Position numbers and translations under genes: made by a program. Source: Candidatus Saccharimonadota bacterium (lineage in GTDB: Bacteria > Patescibacteriota > Saccharimonadia > Saccharimonadales > Saccharimonadaceae). From it: 64,000 nt of DNA. The stretch spans positions 1-64,000 of the forward strand of contig JAFXKT010000001.1 of the NCBI GenBank assembly GCA_017531585.1, written 5' to 3'. Under the pieces are notes generated by a model. The model was not told the DNA's origin and searched no databases. It saw only the letters and a list, made by a program, of their open reading frames with translations. Below are positions 8,485 to 64,000 of the stretch, piece after piece (the first letter of the stretch is position 1; the number at the start of each line of letters is the position of its first letter).

Positions 8485-9135
8485 ATGAATTTTGAGGAGA
8501 AAAAGGCTAGCTTCGCGCAAAAATATCCTGCCTTGAAGGATATATTAAACTTCCTAAGTTTCGTAGGCGCAGTCGTTTTGGGTACCTTTATCTTGAATAG
8601 TTTTGTTTTTCGTAGTTACAACGTCGTTGGCGGCAGTATGGAGAACACTCTTCATTCTGGCGAGCGCGTCATCGTAAACCGCTTCGCTGTTACTATGTCG
8701 CACTTCCTTGGACAGGAATATGTCCCAAATCGTGGCGATATCATTATCTTTGCAAATGGTGGCAACACTGGCACTAAGAGCTGTGAGGCCCAGGCAGGCA
8801 TTGCAGATCAATACATCGTGAAGCGCGTGATTGCCTTCCCTGGAGAGCGCGTAACAGTCGAAGATGGCGTTTTGACCGTCTACAACGACCAACATCCAGA
8901 AGGTTTCCACCCAGACGACGACACCAGAAAATCCGACACAGATGGCCCAAAAAGCTACACATCTGGCAGCGTAAACATGATTGTTCCAGAGGGCGAATTG
9001 TTCGTAAGTGGCGACAACCGCGAAGGCAGCAACTCACTAGACTCCAGAAGCGGTTTAGGAACGATTCCGTTCTGCCGAATCATTGGACCGGCAACGATTA
9101 GGATTTGGCCATTGAATAAGATTAGAACGTTTTAA
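8485..9135 (+). CDS. lepB: Signal peptidase I (active form)
   Basis: 216 residues. One N-terminal membrane anchor (about 22-40), then the S26 catalytic domain. The nucleophile is Ser51 (VVGGSMENTL) and the general base is Lys113 (QYIVKRVIAFPGE). The C-terminal SGDNRxxSxDSR box is present as SGDNREGSNSLDSR. It removes signal peptides from exported proteins at the outer face of the membrane. This is the housekeeping enzyme of the window and contrasts with the homologue at 61695-62183, which lacks both catalytic residues. The mRNA is probably leaderless (TATGCTAAAAT ends 7 bases before the ATG). Confidence 0.95.
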   Translation: MNFEEKKASFAQKYPALKDILNFLSFVGAVVLGTFILNSFVFRSYNVVGGSMENTLHSGERVIVNRFAVTMSHFLGQEYVPNRGDIIIFANGGNTGTKSCEAQAGIADQYIVKRVIAFPGERVTVEDGVLTVYNDQHPEGFHPDDDTRKSDTDGPKSYTSGSVNMIVPEGELFVSGDNREGSNSLDSRSGLGTIPFCRIIGPATIRIWPLNKIRTF

Positions 9136-54218: not shown

Positions 54219-55997
54219 GTGTCTAAAGTTGAATACAAAATCCTAGATTTATTCTCGGGCTGCGGCGGCTTCGCTGTAGGTTTTGATATGCTGCCAGAGT
54301 TCGAGACTCTAATCGCAGTAGATATTATGGATGATGCGCTCAAAACATTTGCGCGTAATTTCCCAAAGGCGAAGATCATCAATGGCGATATCTGTGACGA
54401 GGCAGTTAAACGCGACATTATTCAAAGCGCAAAAGAGCTCAAGATTAATATGATTGTCGGCGGTCCGCCATGTCAGGGATTTAGTAACAAGGGTAAAAAA
54501 CTCGGTCTAAAAGACCCGAGAAATTTCCTATTCAGAGAATACTTAAAACTCGTAGACGAGATTAAACCGGATGTCTTCGTGATCGAAAACGTAAAAGCGC
54601 TCGTCGCAACCGAAAACGGGTGGTTTATTAATGAAATCCTAAATGAAATCAAAAAACTTGGCTATACAGTAAACTACAACATTGCGACAGCGAGCAATTA
54701 TGGCGTCCCGCAACAGCGTCAAAGAACGATCATTCTTGCATCAAAAGACGCTAAAATTGACTTCCCAATTCCTAAGTATGACGAAGAAAAGAAGACCACG
54801 GTTCGTGATGCTATTTCAGATTTAGCATATCTCGAATCCGGAGAGGGAGAAATAGAGAGTAATTATAAAAATACCGCCCAAAGCAAATACCAAGAATTAT
54901 TAAGAAATCCGTCAGGAAAACTCTATAATCATAACGCAACAAATCATTCAGAAGTTGCTTTGTCCAAATTAAAAATGATCCCGCCGGAGGGCGATAAGAA
55001 ATCACTTCCAAAAGAATTACTTGGAAACCAAAAATTCAATACGACATGGGGGCGCCTAAAATGGGATAGCCAGAGCCCAACGATAGATACCCGTTTCGAT
55101 ACCCCATCCAACGGCACTAATAGCCATCCTGAACTAGACCGCTCCATTACCCCACGGGAAGCGGCACGCATTCAAAGTTTTCCTGATTCATTCAAATTCT
55201 TAGGTTCAAAAACATACATCTGCAAGCAGATCGGTAACGCCGTTCCCCCACTACTAGCAAAAGCAATCGGTGAAGCAGTTCTGTTCGGTGAGAAAAAACA
55301 AGATTATCTCATTTATAATCGTGATGCATATAGATTCTTGCGCGATATGGCTTCATATGGTTTCGAAGTAGATCACATAATCACCGACCCACCATACAAT
55401 ATTTCGAAGGACAACAATTTTAGCACCATGAAGAGCGCCAAGCGTCAAGGCGTTGATTTTGGCGAGTGGGACAAAGAGTTTGACTTAACTGGCTGGATTC
55501 CTGATGCAGAAAAGATATTAAGACCAGGTGGCACGTTTATAATCTTTAACTCATATCGTAATCTAACGCCTATTATCGAAAAGATGGAGTCGTGCGGACT
55601 GGTTATAAAGGACGTCATTAAATGGATAAAGACCAATCCAATGCCGAGAAACATCGATAGGCGCTACGTACAGGACACGGAGTATGCCATATGGGCCGTA
55701 AAACCGAAAAAACCTTGGGTATTCAACAAGAAAGCCGATAAACCATATTTACGAGCCGAATACAGAACTTCTACGGTTAGTGGCAACGAACGCACAAGCC
55801 ATCCAACTCAAAAAAGCGAAAAGCTGATGAGCGAAATAATTGAAGTTCACAGCAATAAGGGTGATTTAATTCTAGATCCATTTATGGGCAGCGGAACAAC
55901 CGGCGTGTCTGCTCTATCTAAGGGGCGCCGATTCATAGGTTGCGAGTTAAGCGAAGAATACTTCGATATAGCAAAAGAAAGGATTTCTAATAAATGA
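54219..55997 (+). CDS. Fused DNA methyltransferase: m5C domain plus amino-methyltransferase domain
   Basis: 592 residues, GTG start at 54219 behind AAGG. Residues 1-~360 form a cytosine-5 methyltransferase: DLFSGCGGFAVGFDM (I), VGGPPCQGFSNKGKK (IV, catalytic Cys), FVIENV (VI), QQRQRTI (VIII) and QIGNAVPPLLAKAI (X). Residues ~365-592 form an N6-adenine/N4-cytosine methyltransferase with HIITDPPYNIS (IV) before LILDPFMGSGTTGVSA (I), the beta-type order. One polypeptide with both activities suits an asymmetric site where each strand needs a different modification. The next gene, overlapping by 4 bases, encodes the matching HNH restriction enzyme. Confidence 0.92.
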   Translation: MSKVEYKILDLFSGCGGFAVGFDMLPEFETLIAVDIMDDALKTFARNFPKAKIINGDICDEAVKRDIIQSAKELKINMIVGGPPCQGFSNKGKKLGLKDPRNFLFREYLKLVDEIKPDVFVIENVKALVATENGWFINEILNEIKKLGYTVNYNIATASNYGVPQQRQRTIILASKDAKIDFPIPKYDEEKKTTVRDAISDLAYLESGEGEIESNYKNTAQSKYQELLRNPSGKLYNHNATNHSEVALSKLKMIPPEGDKKSLPKELLGNQKFNTTWGRLKWDSQSPTIDTRFDTPSNGTNSHPELDRSITPREAARIQSFPDSFKFLGSKTYICKQIGNAVPPLLAKAIGEAVLFGEKKQDYLIYNRDAYRFLRDMASYGFEVDHIITDPPYNISKDNNFSTMKSAKRQGVDFGEWDKEFDLTGWIPDAEKILRPGGTFIIFNSYRNLTPIIEKMESCGLVIKDVIKWIKTNPMPRNIDRRYVQDTEYAIWAVKPKKPWVFNKKADKPYLRAEYRTSTVSGNERTSHPTQKSEKLMSEIIEVHSNKGDLILDPFMGSGTTGVSALSKGRRFIGCELSEEYFDIAKERISNK

Positions 55998-57148
55998 AAG
56001 ACGCCGATGATGTTCTAAAAATGCCTATCGATACTCTCCTGGCAGCATTCTTTAACGCAGAAGATAAAAACGGCAATTTTGCTATTGTCTCAAATTACAG
56101 AGAAACTACATATATGAGAATGATTCCTGGCTCTCATAGAAATACGGCAGAAAAACTGCGCAGAAAATACGATTTGCCATTTATGCAAGTTGGAAATACA
56201 AAAATAGAGGCCATAATATCGAACCGAAAAGGTTATTCGCTCGAAGAATTTCGCCATCTATTATACGAAAACATTCTCCAAAAATTTTTTATCACGAATG
56301 CCGGTACTGATATTGACCGAGAAATCGCACTAGCTCTTTTTATTTTTAGGGGAAGCGCTGATTTTATTTACGGGTTTTATTCGGTTGACTTAAAGACACC
56401 ATCGATTCAATTCTTGAATGATATGTATAAAATACTGCTATCCTCAAACGATTTAATTAACCGTCTTAATCTAAATTTTCGCGAATTTCAGCCACAATAT
56501 CTACAAGGAATACAACGCAATACACAAGTAAGAATAAACCTTAAATGGTTTTTTGATAACGTCATGGCATATTATTCAGACATTAACGACTACAAATATG
56601 GTGTTCTATTCCATAATCACACAAAGCTAGGCGATACTAGACGCTATAATGCATTTGTCGAAAGATTGACAATCTATCGAGAAGACATTATTGGCAGAAA
56701 GCTCAGTGATCGGGAAAAAGAAAGGATGCGAGAAGAACTCAACCTCGAGATTTCTAACAATGATGGCGAGCAGGTCGCTGGCAGGAATCAAAAGATTGTT
56801 TCGTTTGCGAGAGAGGCGTTTCCTGATGAATGCGTCGGATGTCGTAATCATTACAATATCGCGGACAGAAGTTTTATTATGCCACGAAATGGACGTTACT
56901 ATTTTGAAATAAACCACGTCATACCGTATGCTAATGACAATAAAAAAGTCGATGTGCTCGACAATTTAGTAAAACTGTGCCCTACGTGTCACCGCGCATT
57001 AACGCCAGGGCGTGCCGACGAAACACTCCAACGCGAAATAATCCATAATATGCTCGAGTCGCGGCCAGAAGTAAAGCAATTCGTTATAGCAATGGAGAGC
57101 GGTAGATTTGCAACGCCGGAAGATTATGTCTTTAGTGCTCTAAGATAA
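55994..57148 (+). CDS. HNH-type restriction endonuclease
   Basis: 384 residues. Up to ~270 there is no recognised domain (probably DNA recognition). Then the HNH nuclease: DECVGCRNHYN, YYFEINHVIPYAND, VDVLDNLVKLCPTCHRAL, with two Cys pairs for zinc and the catalytic His in EINHVIP. The start overlaps the methyltransferase stop, giving a compact type II restriction-modification pair. The recognition site is not readable from the sequence. Confidence 0.88.
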   Translation: MKDADDVLKMPIDTLLAAFFNAEDKNGNFAIVSNYRETTYMRMIPGSHRNTAEKLRRKYDLPFMQVGNTKIEAIISNRKGYSLEEFRHLLYENILQKFFITNAGTDIDREIALALFIFRGSADFIYGFYSVDLKTPSIQFLNDMYKILLSSNDLINRLNLNFREFQPQYLQGIQRNTQVRINLKWFFDNVMAYYSDINDYKYGVLFHNHTKLGDTRRYNAFVERLTIYREDIIGRKLSDREKERMREELNLEISNNDGEQVAGRNQKIVSFAREAFPDECVGCRNHYNIADRSFIMPRNGRYYFEINHVIPYANDNKKVDVLDNLVKLCPTCHRALTPGRADETLQREIIHNMLESRPEVKQFVIAMESGRFATPEDYVFSALR

Positions 57149-60863: not shown

Positions 60864-61694
60864 TTATTTCTTCTTGATTGGATTGTTTGGATCAAAGCTA
60901 ACGTAAACTACTTGGCGCATGTTTGCCTGACCATGACAGGTAGACAAGGCTAGGATTTTGTATTCCGGATTCATTTCCCTATAATGCAAAGCCTTCTCTT
61001 TGATGTAGCTGCGGACAGTGTCGCTCTTATTCTTGATAGAGCCAACATCATAAACACCATCGTCATCCTTGTCCGTCACGAACTCAGCATTAACTGTCAG
61101 ATTATATGTTCCATGAAGCGTATAAAGCTTGCCGGTCGTGTGCTCATTAAAGAATTTGTCGTTATTGTATTCCTTAAGCGGTCCAAACATCGCTTCGTTA
61201 TTAGTATTGTGACCATAGACCAGAGTATAGTCGTCAGAAAAATCGCTTGAGTTCTGCCAGTCGACATAAATACTGCCGGAGTAGGCATATTCTTTGAGAT
61301 AGTTATGAGAGAGATAATACTGGTTGTTATTGGTCTGAAGAATCGGGTAATCTATTGTCGTGCCTTCCAAAGTTAGCCAGCCAATAATATCTGGGTTCTT
61401 TTGGCGCAAACCTTCGAGATCGATATTGCGCTCGCCATCTTCCTCAGAAATATATTGCTTCACTTCTTCAGGGAGCCCAGCCTCATGATAAACCTTTACG
61501 GAATCATAAATCGCATAAAGACTAAACATCAAAATCAGCAAAAAGAAGAGAATGCAGGCCCAGTCGATAATAAAGTTGGCAGCATCAACGACTTTTTCGC
61601 CAGCACTAGTTTTCTTGCTAGTAGCTTTCTTTGGGCTGGTTTTAGCCTGAGCCTTCTCTGCTTCACTAACAGCTTCAGATTTAGCCGCTTCCAT
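60864..61694 (-). CDS. Class B sortase (pilus-type)
   Basis: 276 residues. A basic, Lys/Ala-rich cytoplasmic start (1-35), a membrane anchor (43-63) and an extracytoplasmic sortase domain. Catalytic His162 (LVYGHNTNNEAMF), Cys253 (ILALSTCHG) and Arg260 (NMRQVVYV) are all present; YPILQTNNNQYYLSHNY and GSIYVDWQNSSDF are class B features. Sortases join sorting signals to pilin Lys residues or to the wall. It follows the signal-peptidase homologue without a gap and is the last gene of the pilus locus. In streptococcal FCT islands the pilin polymerase is likewise class-B-like. It may also anchor the 949-residue surface protein. Confidence 0.93.
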   Translation of the reverse strand: MEAAKSEAVSEAEKAQAKTSPKKATSKKTSAGEKVVDAANFIIDWACILFFLLILMFSLYAIYDSVKVYHEAGLPEEVKQYISEEDGERNIDLEGLRQKNPDIIGWLTLEGTTIDYPILQTNNNQYYLSHNYLKEYAYSGSIYVDWQNSSDFSDDYTLVYGHNTNNEAMFGPLKEYNNDKFFNEHTTGKLYTLHGTYNLTVNAEFVTDKDDDGVYDVGSIKNKSDTVRSYIKEKALHYREMNPEYKILALSTCHGQANMRQVVYVSFDPNNPIKKK

Positions 61695-62183
61695 TTACAA
61701 CCCGCGCGTACGCAAAATACTTATCAGTTTTCCATCAATATCTTCTGGCGGATAGGCGCCACTCGTACGAGAATCGTTTGGTTCGTCGCGATTATCGCCA
61801 ACAGCAAAGAAATGGCCGGCTGGAACGGTATAAGGGTAAGTTATACCGCCATTGATTTTATCTTTGCCAGTAAAGACTTTGTCGATGTCTAGTGCAGAAT
61901 CATTAACATAGAGTTTGCCAGATTCCGTCATCGTAACTTTGTCGCCACCACAAGCCACGACGCGAAGGAACGCACGGCCACCGCCTTGCTTGATTGCGAC
62001 GACATCTCCAGGATGACAACTTTTGTCTAGGTGGTAATAGAGAGCCAAATCGCCACCATTGATGCTTGGAGACATATTGTTTGAGTTTACGCGAGCGAAA
62101 CCAAAGATTATGAAAAAGAGTACAAAATAAACAAGTTCGATTACGATAATCTTGATGATTAACGATATAACTTTGCGTTTCAT
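61695..62183 (-). CDS. Signal peptidase I homologue lacking both catalytic residues (SipA-like pilus assembly factor)
   Basis: 162 residues. A membrane anchor (8-28) and an S26 fold with the late box AVGDNRDEPNDSRTSG intact. In the nucleophile box ARVNSNNMSPSI the residue before Met, Ser in active enzymes, is Asn36. In the base box GRAFLRVVACGGD the Lys is Leu73. The active enzyme of this genome (8485-9135) has Ser and Lys at both places. In Streptococcus pyogenes the pilus protein SipA is likewise a signal peptidase homologue without the dyad, and is needed for pilus assembly. The gene stands between the pilin and the sortase genes, as expected for such a role. Confidence 0.85.
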   Translation of the reverse strand: MKRKVISLIIKIIVIELVYFVLFFIIFGFARVNSNNMSPSINGGDLALYYHLDKSCHPGDVVAIKQGGGRAFLRVVACGGDKVTMTESGKLYVNDSALDIDKVFTGKDKINGGITYPYTVPAGHFFAVGDNRDEPNDSRTSGAYPPEDIDGKLISILRTRGL

Positions 62184-62240: not shown

Positions 62241-63419
62241 TTAGGCTTCTTTCTTTGAAGTTTTTCTTAAGATTACTACGCTACCACCAGCGATGATTGC
62301 GAGAATTACGAATGGGAGAATCATGAAGAATCTACCAGCTGGGCTACCTTCGCTTAGGGTGTTTACGTATAGATATTCGTCATTGTCGCCTAGAGAAGCC
62401 TTGGTAATTGGGCGCTCCAAGATATTACCGTCATTCCAATGGTTAATTCTATTCGTGCCAGTAAGATCACTATATGCATCAGTCGTAGTTGAAGACAAAG
62501 AAGAAGGTAGGTTTTCCGTAATTGTGTAGCTGTAACCGCCAGGAACTAACTCATTCGTGTTGCCGGTAACACCAATAAGCACCATTTCATTGTGGGCGAG
62601 TTTAATACCTGTCTTTGTACATTTTGCACCGACATTGTTGCTCGTAAAGGTACAGGACGTTTCAGTACCATCATCTAGCTTAAAGTGAACCGTTTCGTTA
62701 TTCGAGCCCGTCCATGCATAATTCCTAGTTAGTTCTACAGTAAAATCATACTGCTCTGTTGGATCAGCAATGTTACCCTTTACCTGCTTCTTGAGCGAGA
62801 TATGAGTCTTGGTATATGATGCAGTGCTAGTAAAGTTTGGAGTGGCCTTAGCCTTAATCATGATGCCATAGTTGCCAGTCGTGTTGCTCGATATAGGATC
62901 GCCGTTACCGTCTACGTCTAGATAGGCAGAAAATTCGATTTCCTGATTAGGATCGTCTGCATAATATCCGCCATTATCGCCACTACCAGAAGTATTTCTC
63001 TCGGTAACATTTACTGTATACTCGCCATATACCATATTAGTATTAGTAAATGCGCCGCTAAAGTTCAGGGTGGCACAATTTTCTGCGGTTGAGCTAGCGC
63101 CACCGTTGTTATTTATAGTTAACGTCAAGACACCAGCATTAGCGGCAGAAGAGCTATAGCTGACGCCAGTCGCAGAAGTAGCCGTTACGCCCTGCAAATC
63201 GATATAATTACTAACATTCGAAAGATCATAAATAAACGTATCCGAGTAAGGACCTTGTAATCCTTCTACTTTTTTACAGACCTGTACACTCTGTGCGCTT
63301 GAATCATAGCGCATTTCCATATTGTTTGCTGCGCTTGCATTGCCCGCGAAGCTTGCGATGCCGAACACGCTGGCTACGGTTGCGGCAGCAATATTTGTTA
63401 GTTGTTTTATTTTACCCAT
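62241..63419 (-). CDS. Major pilin-like surface protein (FctA/Spy0128-type)
   Basis: 392 residues. Signal peptide ending FAGNASA|ANN (~30). An N-terminal domain (~40-200) is followed by a second domain from ~205 with HISLKKQVKGN, QYDFTVELTRN and GGYSYTITENLP, the pattern of self-crosslinking pilin domains (Lys early, Glu in YTITE). The C-terminus is a sorting signal: LSEGSPAGR, a hydrophobic stretch and RKTSKKEA. It lacks LPxTG but resembles the EVPTG signal of streptococcal FctA in position and form. Own promoter; followed by an attenuator, SipA-like and sortase genes. Likely the shaft subunit of a covalent pilus. Confidence 0.8.
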   Translation of the reverse strand: MGKIKQLTNIAAATVASVFGIASFAGNASAANNMEMRYDSSAQSVQVCKKVEGLQGPYSDTFIYDLSNVSNYIDLQGVTATSATGVSYSSSAANAGVLTLTINNNGGASSTAENCATLNFSGAFTNTNMVYGEYTVNVTERNTSGSGDNGGYYADDPNQEIEFSAYLDVDGNGDPISSNTTGNYGIMIKAKATPNFTSTASYTKTHISLKKQVKGNIADPTEQYDFTVELTRNYAWTGSNNETVHFKLDDGTETSCTFTSNNVGAKCTKTGIKLAHNEMVLIGVTGNTNELVPGGYSYTITENLPSSLSSTTTDAYSDLTGTNRINHWNDGNILERPITKASLGDNDEYLYVNTLSEGSPAGRFFMILPFVILAIIAGGSVVILRKTSKKEA

Positions 63420-63475: not shown

Positions 63476-64000
63476 TTAATCCTTTTTCTTTTTAACTTTT
63501 TTCGACCTGATCATAATAATTGTTACGATTGCGCCTATCGATATTAGAGCCAACCATACATAAAGACCGTTTTTGTAGTTTAGACCCGTATTTACGATAT
63601 CGATAATTTCGTCGATTGGATCTTTCGGGATGTTGCGGTAGTTAATAAATAACGTAAAGTTATCTTCTGGTTCTTCGTTTACCGTCTTGGTTATTTCGGT
63701 TCGATATCCAGCGTCTTTGCTATCAATCCAGGTTTTGTAATCATTTACGTCTGGAATTTCTTCGTAGCTATATTCAAGCCCGTAAGGAATTTCGTAGTTA
63801 CCATTTTCGTCGATACCGATCGTGGCGGTTTCGCCGTGGCGCAAGTAGAAGACTGCTTTCTTGCCACCTTCGGCATATTCGTCAGAAGTTACTTCCTGGC
63901 CGCCGAATTTATATTCACCAGACGGAGTACGAATCGTATAGGTATAACCTTCGCCTTCGATTTGGAAGATATATTTGAATACATCTTTATCGCTAGCGTC
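63476..64000 (-). CDS. Pilus ancillary subunit / FctA-like surface protein, N-terminal part outside the window
   Basis: 174 residues are visible; the frame is open to the window edge, so the protein is longer. The visible part begins DASDKDVFKYIFQIEGEG and continues AVFYLRHGETATIGI, YEIPYGLEYSYEEIPD, the layout of isopeptide-forming pilin domains (last strand Y-x-Y-x-E-x). The end is a sorting signal, DIVNTGLNYKNG, a membrane segment and KKVKKKKD, an xPxTG-like motif with Val-Asn. It would be the tip or adhesin subunit encoded upstream of the pilin, like Cpa in streptococci. Confidence 0.75.
   Translation of the reverse strand, partial: DASDKDVFKYIFQIEGEGYTYTIRTPSGEYKFGGQEVTSDEYAEGGKKAVFYLRHGETATIGIDENGNYEIPYGLEYSYEEIPDVNDYKTWIDSKDAGYRTEITKTVNEEPEDNFTLFINYRNIPKDPIDEIIDIVNTGLNYKNGLYVWLALISIGAIVTIIMIRSKKVKKKKD

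What the first reader, a model, noticed from the sequence alone, without database searches (positions are those of the whole stretch)
61695..62183. Signal peptidase homologue with Ser and Lys of the dyad both replaced
Asn36 stands where the nucleophile Ser should precede Met, and Leu73 where the general base Lys should precede Arg, while the C-terminal GDNR...DSR box is intact. The second SPase of the window (Ser51, Lys113) is complete, so the loss is specific to the pilus copy. SipA of S. pyogenes shows the same double loss and acts as an assembly factor. The replacements differ from those known to me, which suggests independent inactivation or deep divergence.
Basis: partly seen in the sequence, partly recalled or inferred. 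Interest (0 to 1): 0.75.

Follow-up and report, generated by a model that had tools for sequence, protein, structure and literature searches.

The report
Dyad-less signal-peptidase-like pilus assembly factor
A tiny gut bacterium of the Saccharibacteria carries a signal-peptidase look-alike that has lost both catalytic residues and sits in a pilus operon beside a class B sortase, so it is a distant relative of the Streptococcus pyogenes pilus assembly factor SipA; sister species carry stripped-down versions of it, which make the unsolved question of how SipA works directly testable.

Summary
ORF 61695-62183 (minus strand, 162 aa) is a peptidase S26 protein with Asn36 at the nucleophile position and Leu73 at the general-base position. 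The other signal peptidase of the window keeps Ser51 and Lys113. The protein is a SipA-family pilus assembly factor by sequence, predicted fold, tree and operon (adhesin, two pilins, SipA, class B sortase). The genome is a 1.0 Mb Saccharibacterium.

"Independent inactivation" is not supported. In a 102-row tree, 39 Lys-less proteins, S. pyogenes SipA among them, form one clade (100/96). Within it the Ser position drifts (S/A/V/N/G/I/D) and the Lys position is never Lys. The lysine was most likely lost once, long before this lineage; N36/L73 is recent drift at positions that no longer matter. Purifying selection is strong (dN/dS about 0.04).

It always adjoins a second class B sortase. This favours a membrane scaffold over a peptide-binding cleft as the working part of SipA; that mechanism is inferred, not shown.

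The parts
61695..62183 (-). SipA-like inactive signal peptidase homologue, 162 aa (ATG at 62183, TAA)
62106..62180 (-). N-terminal membrane helix, residues 2-26
   Evidence: AlphaFold2 helix 2-26, block pLDDT 93-97 for residues 1-30; hydrophobic in sequence
62076..62078 (-). Asn36 codon AAT, position of the SPase nucleophile Ser
61965..61967 (-). Leu73 codon CTT, position of the SPase general base Lys
61767..61799 (-). GDNRDEPNDSR box (residues 129-139), intact
60864..61694 (-). class B sortase, starts directly at the sipA stop codon; YGH, LSTC and Arg motifs present
   Evidence: TIGR03064 162.3 bits, cut-off 153.75; PF04203
62184..62240 (-). 12-bp G+C-rich hairpin with U-run between the pilin gene and sipA; probable attenuator
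   Evidence: -20.1 kcal/mol, z -4.1, 0 of 200 shuffles as stable; hairpins of different sequence at the same place in G014 and G003, near-identical one in G035; not listed by the terminator scan
62241..63419 (-). probable major pilin, 392 aa: signal peptide, DUF7601 domain, C-terminal hydrophobic stretch with positive tail, atypical sorting region SEGSPAGRFF
63476..64000 (-). second pilin-like protein (379 aa; gene continues to C4:64615), sorting region IVNTGLN
8485..9135 (+). housekeeping signal peptidase I with intact Ser51 and Lys113 (comparison; not part of the pilus system)

Best explanation
The protein is a SipA-family pseudo-peptidase: a membrane-anchored, non-catalytic assembly factor for a class B sortase pilus of an ultra-small Saccharibacterium. 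Shown here: fold, loss of the dyad, clade, operon and purifying selection. Inferred: pilins are exported by Sec, their signal peptides are cut by the housekeeping SPase (8485-9135), and they stay in the membrane by their C-terminal sorting stretch. The SipA-like protein lies on the membrane surface beside the sortase by its helix and its membrane-facing sheet of first, second and last strands. It does not cut; it holds pilin and sortase in the right geometry, so that a class B sortase, which lacks the lid of class C pilus sortases, polymerises pilin instead of anchoring it to the wall. Because mini-SipAs keep only the helix and this sheet, I take that part to be the working core, and the inherited peptide cleft to be optional. 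Confidence by step: SipA family member 0.95; non-catalytic 0.93; needed for pilus assembly 0.8; membrane-sheet scaffold as the mechanism 0.4.
For: Fold: AF2 model mean pLDDT 85; best match SipA 4n31, Z 18.2, rmsd 2.2 over 133 residues, ahead of E. coli SPase Z 13. Clade: 39 Lys-less rows including S. pyogenes SipA 100/96, SH-aLRT 94 with the dyad columns removed. Genomic association: of 118 S26 ORFs, 35 of 36 with a class B sortase within 4 kb lack the Lys, against 10 of 82 without one; Fisher p 9e-20, uncorrected for kinship. Operon adhesin-pilin-pilin-SipA-SrtB, kept in kind in eight other species. Purifying selection. Function by analogy: SipA is essential for pilus polymerisation, shows no peptidase activity, and D61A, D61S, D61A/K98A and the cleft mutant V99R still polymerise (PMC4049620); SipA-requiring pili use class B sortases. 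Core: 19 mini-SipAs in 18 genomes, each directly upstream of a class B sortase, homologous to SipA (hhalign E 1.8e-20), dN/dS 0.24 in the closest pair.
Against: No experiment on this protein or on any Saccharibacterial pilus. The pilins have no PDB relative by sequence and the sorting region of the major pilin is atypical. Class B sortase loci without any SipA exist: own genome C4:422264, where a pilin gene is followed directly by the sortase (L147). SipA is therefore not needed by every class B sortase, or the full-length one acts in trans. Young et al. found no binding of SipA to pilin, sortase or peptides, so direct contacts are unproven. The mini-SipA argument assumes that both forms do the same job.
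Confidence: 0.8

Rival explanations
1. Cleft-based chaperone: the dyad-less cleft binds, without cutting, a signal peptide or sorting signal of the pilins and hands it to the class B sortase (the proposal of Young et al.).
For: The overall fold and the GDNR..DSR box are kept here; SipA bound a peptide in its crystal cleft (PMC4049620).
Against: V99R in the cleft had no effect, and no peptide bound in solution (PMC4049620). Mini-SipAs lack the strands and box that form the cleft yet stay beside the sortase. In the Ser-keeping Saccharibacterial subgroup the DNR motif has degenerated (KNLEAMDDSR).
Confidence: 0.25
2. Cryptic peptidase: the protein still cleaves, by another residue pair or with residues supplied by pilin or sortase.
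For: Fold and DSR motif are conserved; substrate-assisted catalysis has been considered for SipA (PMC4049620).
Against: No alternative Ser/Lys, Ser/His or Cys pair is conserved; the Lys position is S, G, L, A or Q and the Ser position seven different residues; S. pyogenes SipA has no activity; an intact SPase is present in the genome.
Confidence: 0.04
3. Independent recent inactivation of an ordinary SPase, now a decaying gene.
For: N/L is unique to three species of the genus.
Against: Lys is absent in the entire clade; dN/dS about 0.04 and intact operon in related species.
Confidence: 0.03

Closest known systems
SipA/LepA of S. pyogenes FCT-2/3/4 pilus operons (Spy0127; PDB 4n31, 4k8w)
   Same: S26 fold, one N-terminal membrane helix, both dyad residues lost, operon with pilins and a class B sortase, same clade
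   Different: Asn/Leu instead of Asp/Gly; about 36% identity over the aligned structure; Saccharibacteria; Gly129 and Asn131 of the GDNR box kept where SipA has Asn140 and Tyr
Clostridium perfringens VR-10B pilus locus (CnaA, FimA, FimB, signal peptidase, class B sortase; PMC8088525)
   Same: three pilin-type proteins, a signal peptidase homologue and a class B sortase in one operon
   Different: its signal peptidase was not compared here (sequence not held); another phylum
Coriobacteriia (Atopobiaceae) SipA-like proteins of ruminant gut MAGs, L041-L051
   Same: nearest relatives outside Saccharibacteria (35-40% identity), Lys lost, sortase found nearby in five of nine
   Different: nucleophile Ser kept (DPSMEP), Lys replaced by Gly; G+C 0.55-0.62 against 0.38-0.48
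type I signal peptidase (LepB, SpsB)
   Same: fold and DSR box
   Different: catalytic Ser and Lys

Membership tests
SipA/LepA pilus assembly factors | S26 signal peptidase fold with small cap domain | tested here: met
SipA/LepA pilus assembly factors | catalytic Ser and Lys both replaced | tested here: met
   N36, L73
SipA/LepA pilus assembly factors | groups with S. pyogenes SipA apart from active SPases | tested here: met
   100/96; 94 with dyad columns removed
SipA/LepA pilus assembly factors | encoded with pilins and a class B sortase | tested here: met
SipA/LepA pilus assembly factors | required for pilus polymerisation | not testable with these tools
   needs deletion and immunoblot
SipA/LepA pilus assembly factors | no peptidase activity | not testable with these tools
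   needs purified protein; sequence predicts none
type I signal peptidase (active enzyme) | nucleophile Ser before Met | tested here: not met
   Asn36
type I signal peptidase (active enzyme) | general base Lys before Arg | tested here: not met
   Leu73
class B sortase (neighbour 60864-61694) | TIGR03064 above curated cut-off | tested here: met
   162.3 against 153.75 bits
FctA-type pilin (62241-63419) | sequence similarity to solved FctA/Spy0128 or other pilins | tested here: inconclusive
   no PDB match; DUF7601 only, 29.5 bits

The most novel reading that the evidence does not exclude
SipA is not a peptide-binding chaperone but a membrane scaffold for class B sortases. Its working part is the membrane helix plus the membrane-facing sheet of first, second and last strands. 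The genus of the window shows the reduction in nature: full-length proteins without a dyad, an intermediate of about 105 aa, mini-SipAs of 72-109 aa without cap, active site and most of the cleft, and loci with none.
Probability: 0.4. Interest if true: 0.7.

Novelty: new member of a known kind. Interest (0 to 1): 0.5.

Why it matters
How SipA serves class B sortase pili has been open since 2008; the 2021 review still calls its function unknown (PMC7900414). The window extends this machinery to Saccharibacteria, small episymbionts, for which I found no report of sortase-SipA pili in the paper library. The closest foreign relatives lie in Coriobacteriia of the same ruminant gut. Saccharibacteria are known to live on Actinomycetota (own knowledge), so exchange between epibiont and possible host, or a shared donor, is worth testing. 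The natural series full, reduced, mini and absent gives ready-made constructs to find the working part of SipA.

Tried and rejected
An alternative dyad (Ser34, Lys54 or another) was rejected by conservation. Pseudogene was rejected by dN/dS and by intact operons in related species. A changed genetic code does not bear on the window gene, and valS in 45 genomes of the genus shows no in-frame TGA. The structure of a mini-SipA was not predicted, because loci of that origin are not named in the rule of the prediction tool. Pilin against PDB found nothing. The terminator scan did not list the hairpin that folding shows. Paper searches for Saccharibacterial sortase pili and for Patescibacteria/Coriobacteria sortase transfer found nothing relevant.

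Full report
What is there. The ORF at 61695-62183 on the minus strand encodes 162 aa and is a peptidase S26 protein (PF10502 3e-21; TIGR02227 7e-28). Its best solved relative by sequence is S. pyogenes SipA, 8.6e-23, far ahead of active SPases. Asn36 stands where the nucleophile Ser precedes Met; Leu73 stands where the Lys precedes Arg; the GDNRDEPNDSR box is whole. The housekeeping SPase at 8485-9135 has Ser51 and Lys113. The genome holds only these two clear S26 proteins plus a weak, SipW-like third.

Which organism. The window lies in contig C4 of a 1,014,252-base genome, 99.6% complete. Its relatives in named records are Candidatus Saccharibacteria, several from ruminant small intestine.

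Operon. All genes lie on the minus strand. Beyond the window's end, locus L004 shows a 1,420 aa adhesin-like protein (C4 64631-68893), then a 379 aa pilin-like protein, the 392 aa probable major pilin, the SipA-like protein and a class B sortase. The sortase begins at the sipA stop. Between major pilin and sipA lies a 12-bp hairpin with a U-run (-20.1 kcal/mol, z -4.1). Hairpins of other sequence stand at the same place in two further species. A partial terminator there would lower SipA and sortase relative to pilin (inference).

Family-wide state of the dyad. In the genus, 29 of 45 genomes encode a full-length or nearly full-length SipA-like protein (one of these, G037, is reduced). Among 41 family members the Ser position is S 19, A 9, V 5, N 3, G 3, I 1, D 1. 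The Lys position is S 18, G 16, L 4, A 2, Q 1 and never Lys or His. Of 36 S26 ORFs with a class B sortase within 4 kb, 35 lack the Lys; of 82 without one, 10 do. The p-value of 9e-20 does not correct for relatedness.

Tree. In a maximum-likelihood tree of 102 proteins, 39 Lys-less proteins form one clade with support 100/96. It holds S. pyogenes SipA, a Mogibacterium protein (also Asp/Gly), nine Coriobacterial proteins and 28 Saccharibacterial ones; the last form one group (94/82). With the two dyad columns removed the clade stays (SH-aLRT 94), and the Saccharibacterial group drops to 64. The Lys was thus most simply lost once, before Saccharibacteria had the gene. Coriobacterial and one Saccharibacterial subgroup still have Ser without Lys, so the Ser position drifted later. 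The asparagine and leucine here are recent: the closest other species (G014) has Ala/Leu.

Selection. Between G000, G011 and G035 dN is 0.008-0.011 and dS 0.24-0.29. The protein is under strong constraint although its active-site positions are free to vary across the family.

Structure. AlphaFold2 on a 41-row alignment gives mean pLDDT 85. The best structural match is SipA 4n31 (Z 18.2, rmsd 2.2 over 133 residues), then E. coli SPase at Z 13; Foldseek agrees. Helix 2-26 precedes the first strand.

What SipA does elsewhere. SipA is essential for pilus polymerisation, has no detectable peptidase activity, and mutations of the Asp, of the nearby Lys or into the cleft (V99R) do not stop polymerisation; no binding to pilin, sortase or peptides was seen; pili that need SipA use a class B sortase (PMC4049620). 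The 2021 review still lists its function as unknown (PMC7900414).

A new lead: mini-SipA. The same genus has a second class B sortase locus. In 18 genomes, 19 proteins of 72-109 aa lie directly upstream of that sortase. They match SipA over the membrane helix and first two strands (hhalign E 1.8e-20) and end with the last-strand motif (GKVIxxLxVRGF), but lack cap, Lys region and DNR..DSR box. In some, the loop that would carry the Ser is itself deleted. Purifying selection is visible (dN/dS 0.24 in the closest pair). G037 has an intermediate of about 105 aa. The own genome's second locus has no mini-SipA. This series suggests that the cleft can be given up while helix and membrane sheet are kept. 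Two assumptions remain open: that mini-SipA does the same job, and that it folds as the three-strand sheet.

Verdict. Family membership and loss of catalysis are well supported. Role in pilus assembly is inferred from operon and homology. The scaffold mechanism is my preferred but unproven reading.

Noticed in passing
L158, L159, L160, L161, L162, L163, L164, L170 (second-locus sortases); L162 and L169 (mini-SipA): In-frame TGA inside sortase genes of the second locus: 12 such genes among 45 genomes in the family search, never TAA or TAG. At the clearest site 18 of 18 other sequences have Trp; two mini-SipAs also have TGA at a Trp position; all these genes end in TAA or TAG, while valS of the same genomes has no in-frame TGA. 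Looks like locus-specific TGA read as Trp (read-through or recoding).
   Followed up: partly
L158:2771-2986, L171:2962-3177, L173:2400-2618, L160:1704-2003 and others: Mini-SipA proteins (72-109 aa) between pilin and class B sortase in 18 of 45 species of the genus.
   Followed up: partly
L041-L051: Coriobacteriia of ruminant gut have SipA-like proteins with Ser kept and Lys changed to Gly; they are the nearest relatives outside Saccharibacteria, so gene exchange between epibiont and possible host is conceivable.
   Followed up: partly
window 62241-63419 and L150:3591-4685, L151:7723-8796: Major pilins of the window's subclade lack a canonical xPxTG sorting motif (SPAG, TISG, EPADS), while pilins of other subclades have TPRTG, SPKTG, DPLTG or TPTG.
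   Followed up: no
L061:6514-7083, L062:6242-6865, L056:4652-5254, L067:5956-6555: Two further separate losses of the SPase Lys (Gly/Gly and Tyr/Glu) in Clostridia, without a detected class B sortase but near an intact S26 gene.
   Followed up: no
L182:3938-6568: A SipA-like protein (Val/Leu at the dyad) with pilins and class B sortase in another genus of the same Saccharibacterial family; the other genomes of that genus that were read have a sortase but no SipA.
   Followed up: partly
L147:2595-3098 (C4 417594-418097): Third, weak S26 protein of the own genome with a C-terminal membrane helix, SipW-like, about 4 kb from a class B sortase locus.
   Followed up: no
window 54219-55997: One ORF that reads as a cytosine-type DNA methyltransferase fused to a second methyltransferase with a DPPY motif, followed by an HNH-like ORF at 55994-57148; seen in the translation only.
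   Followed up: no
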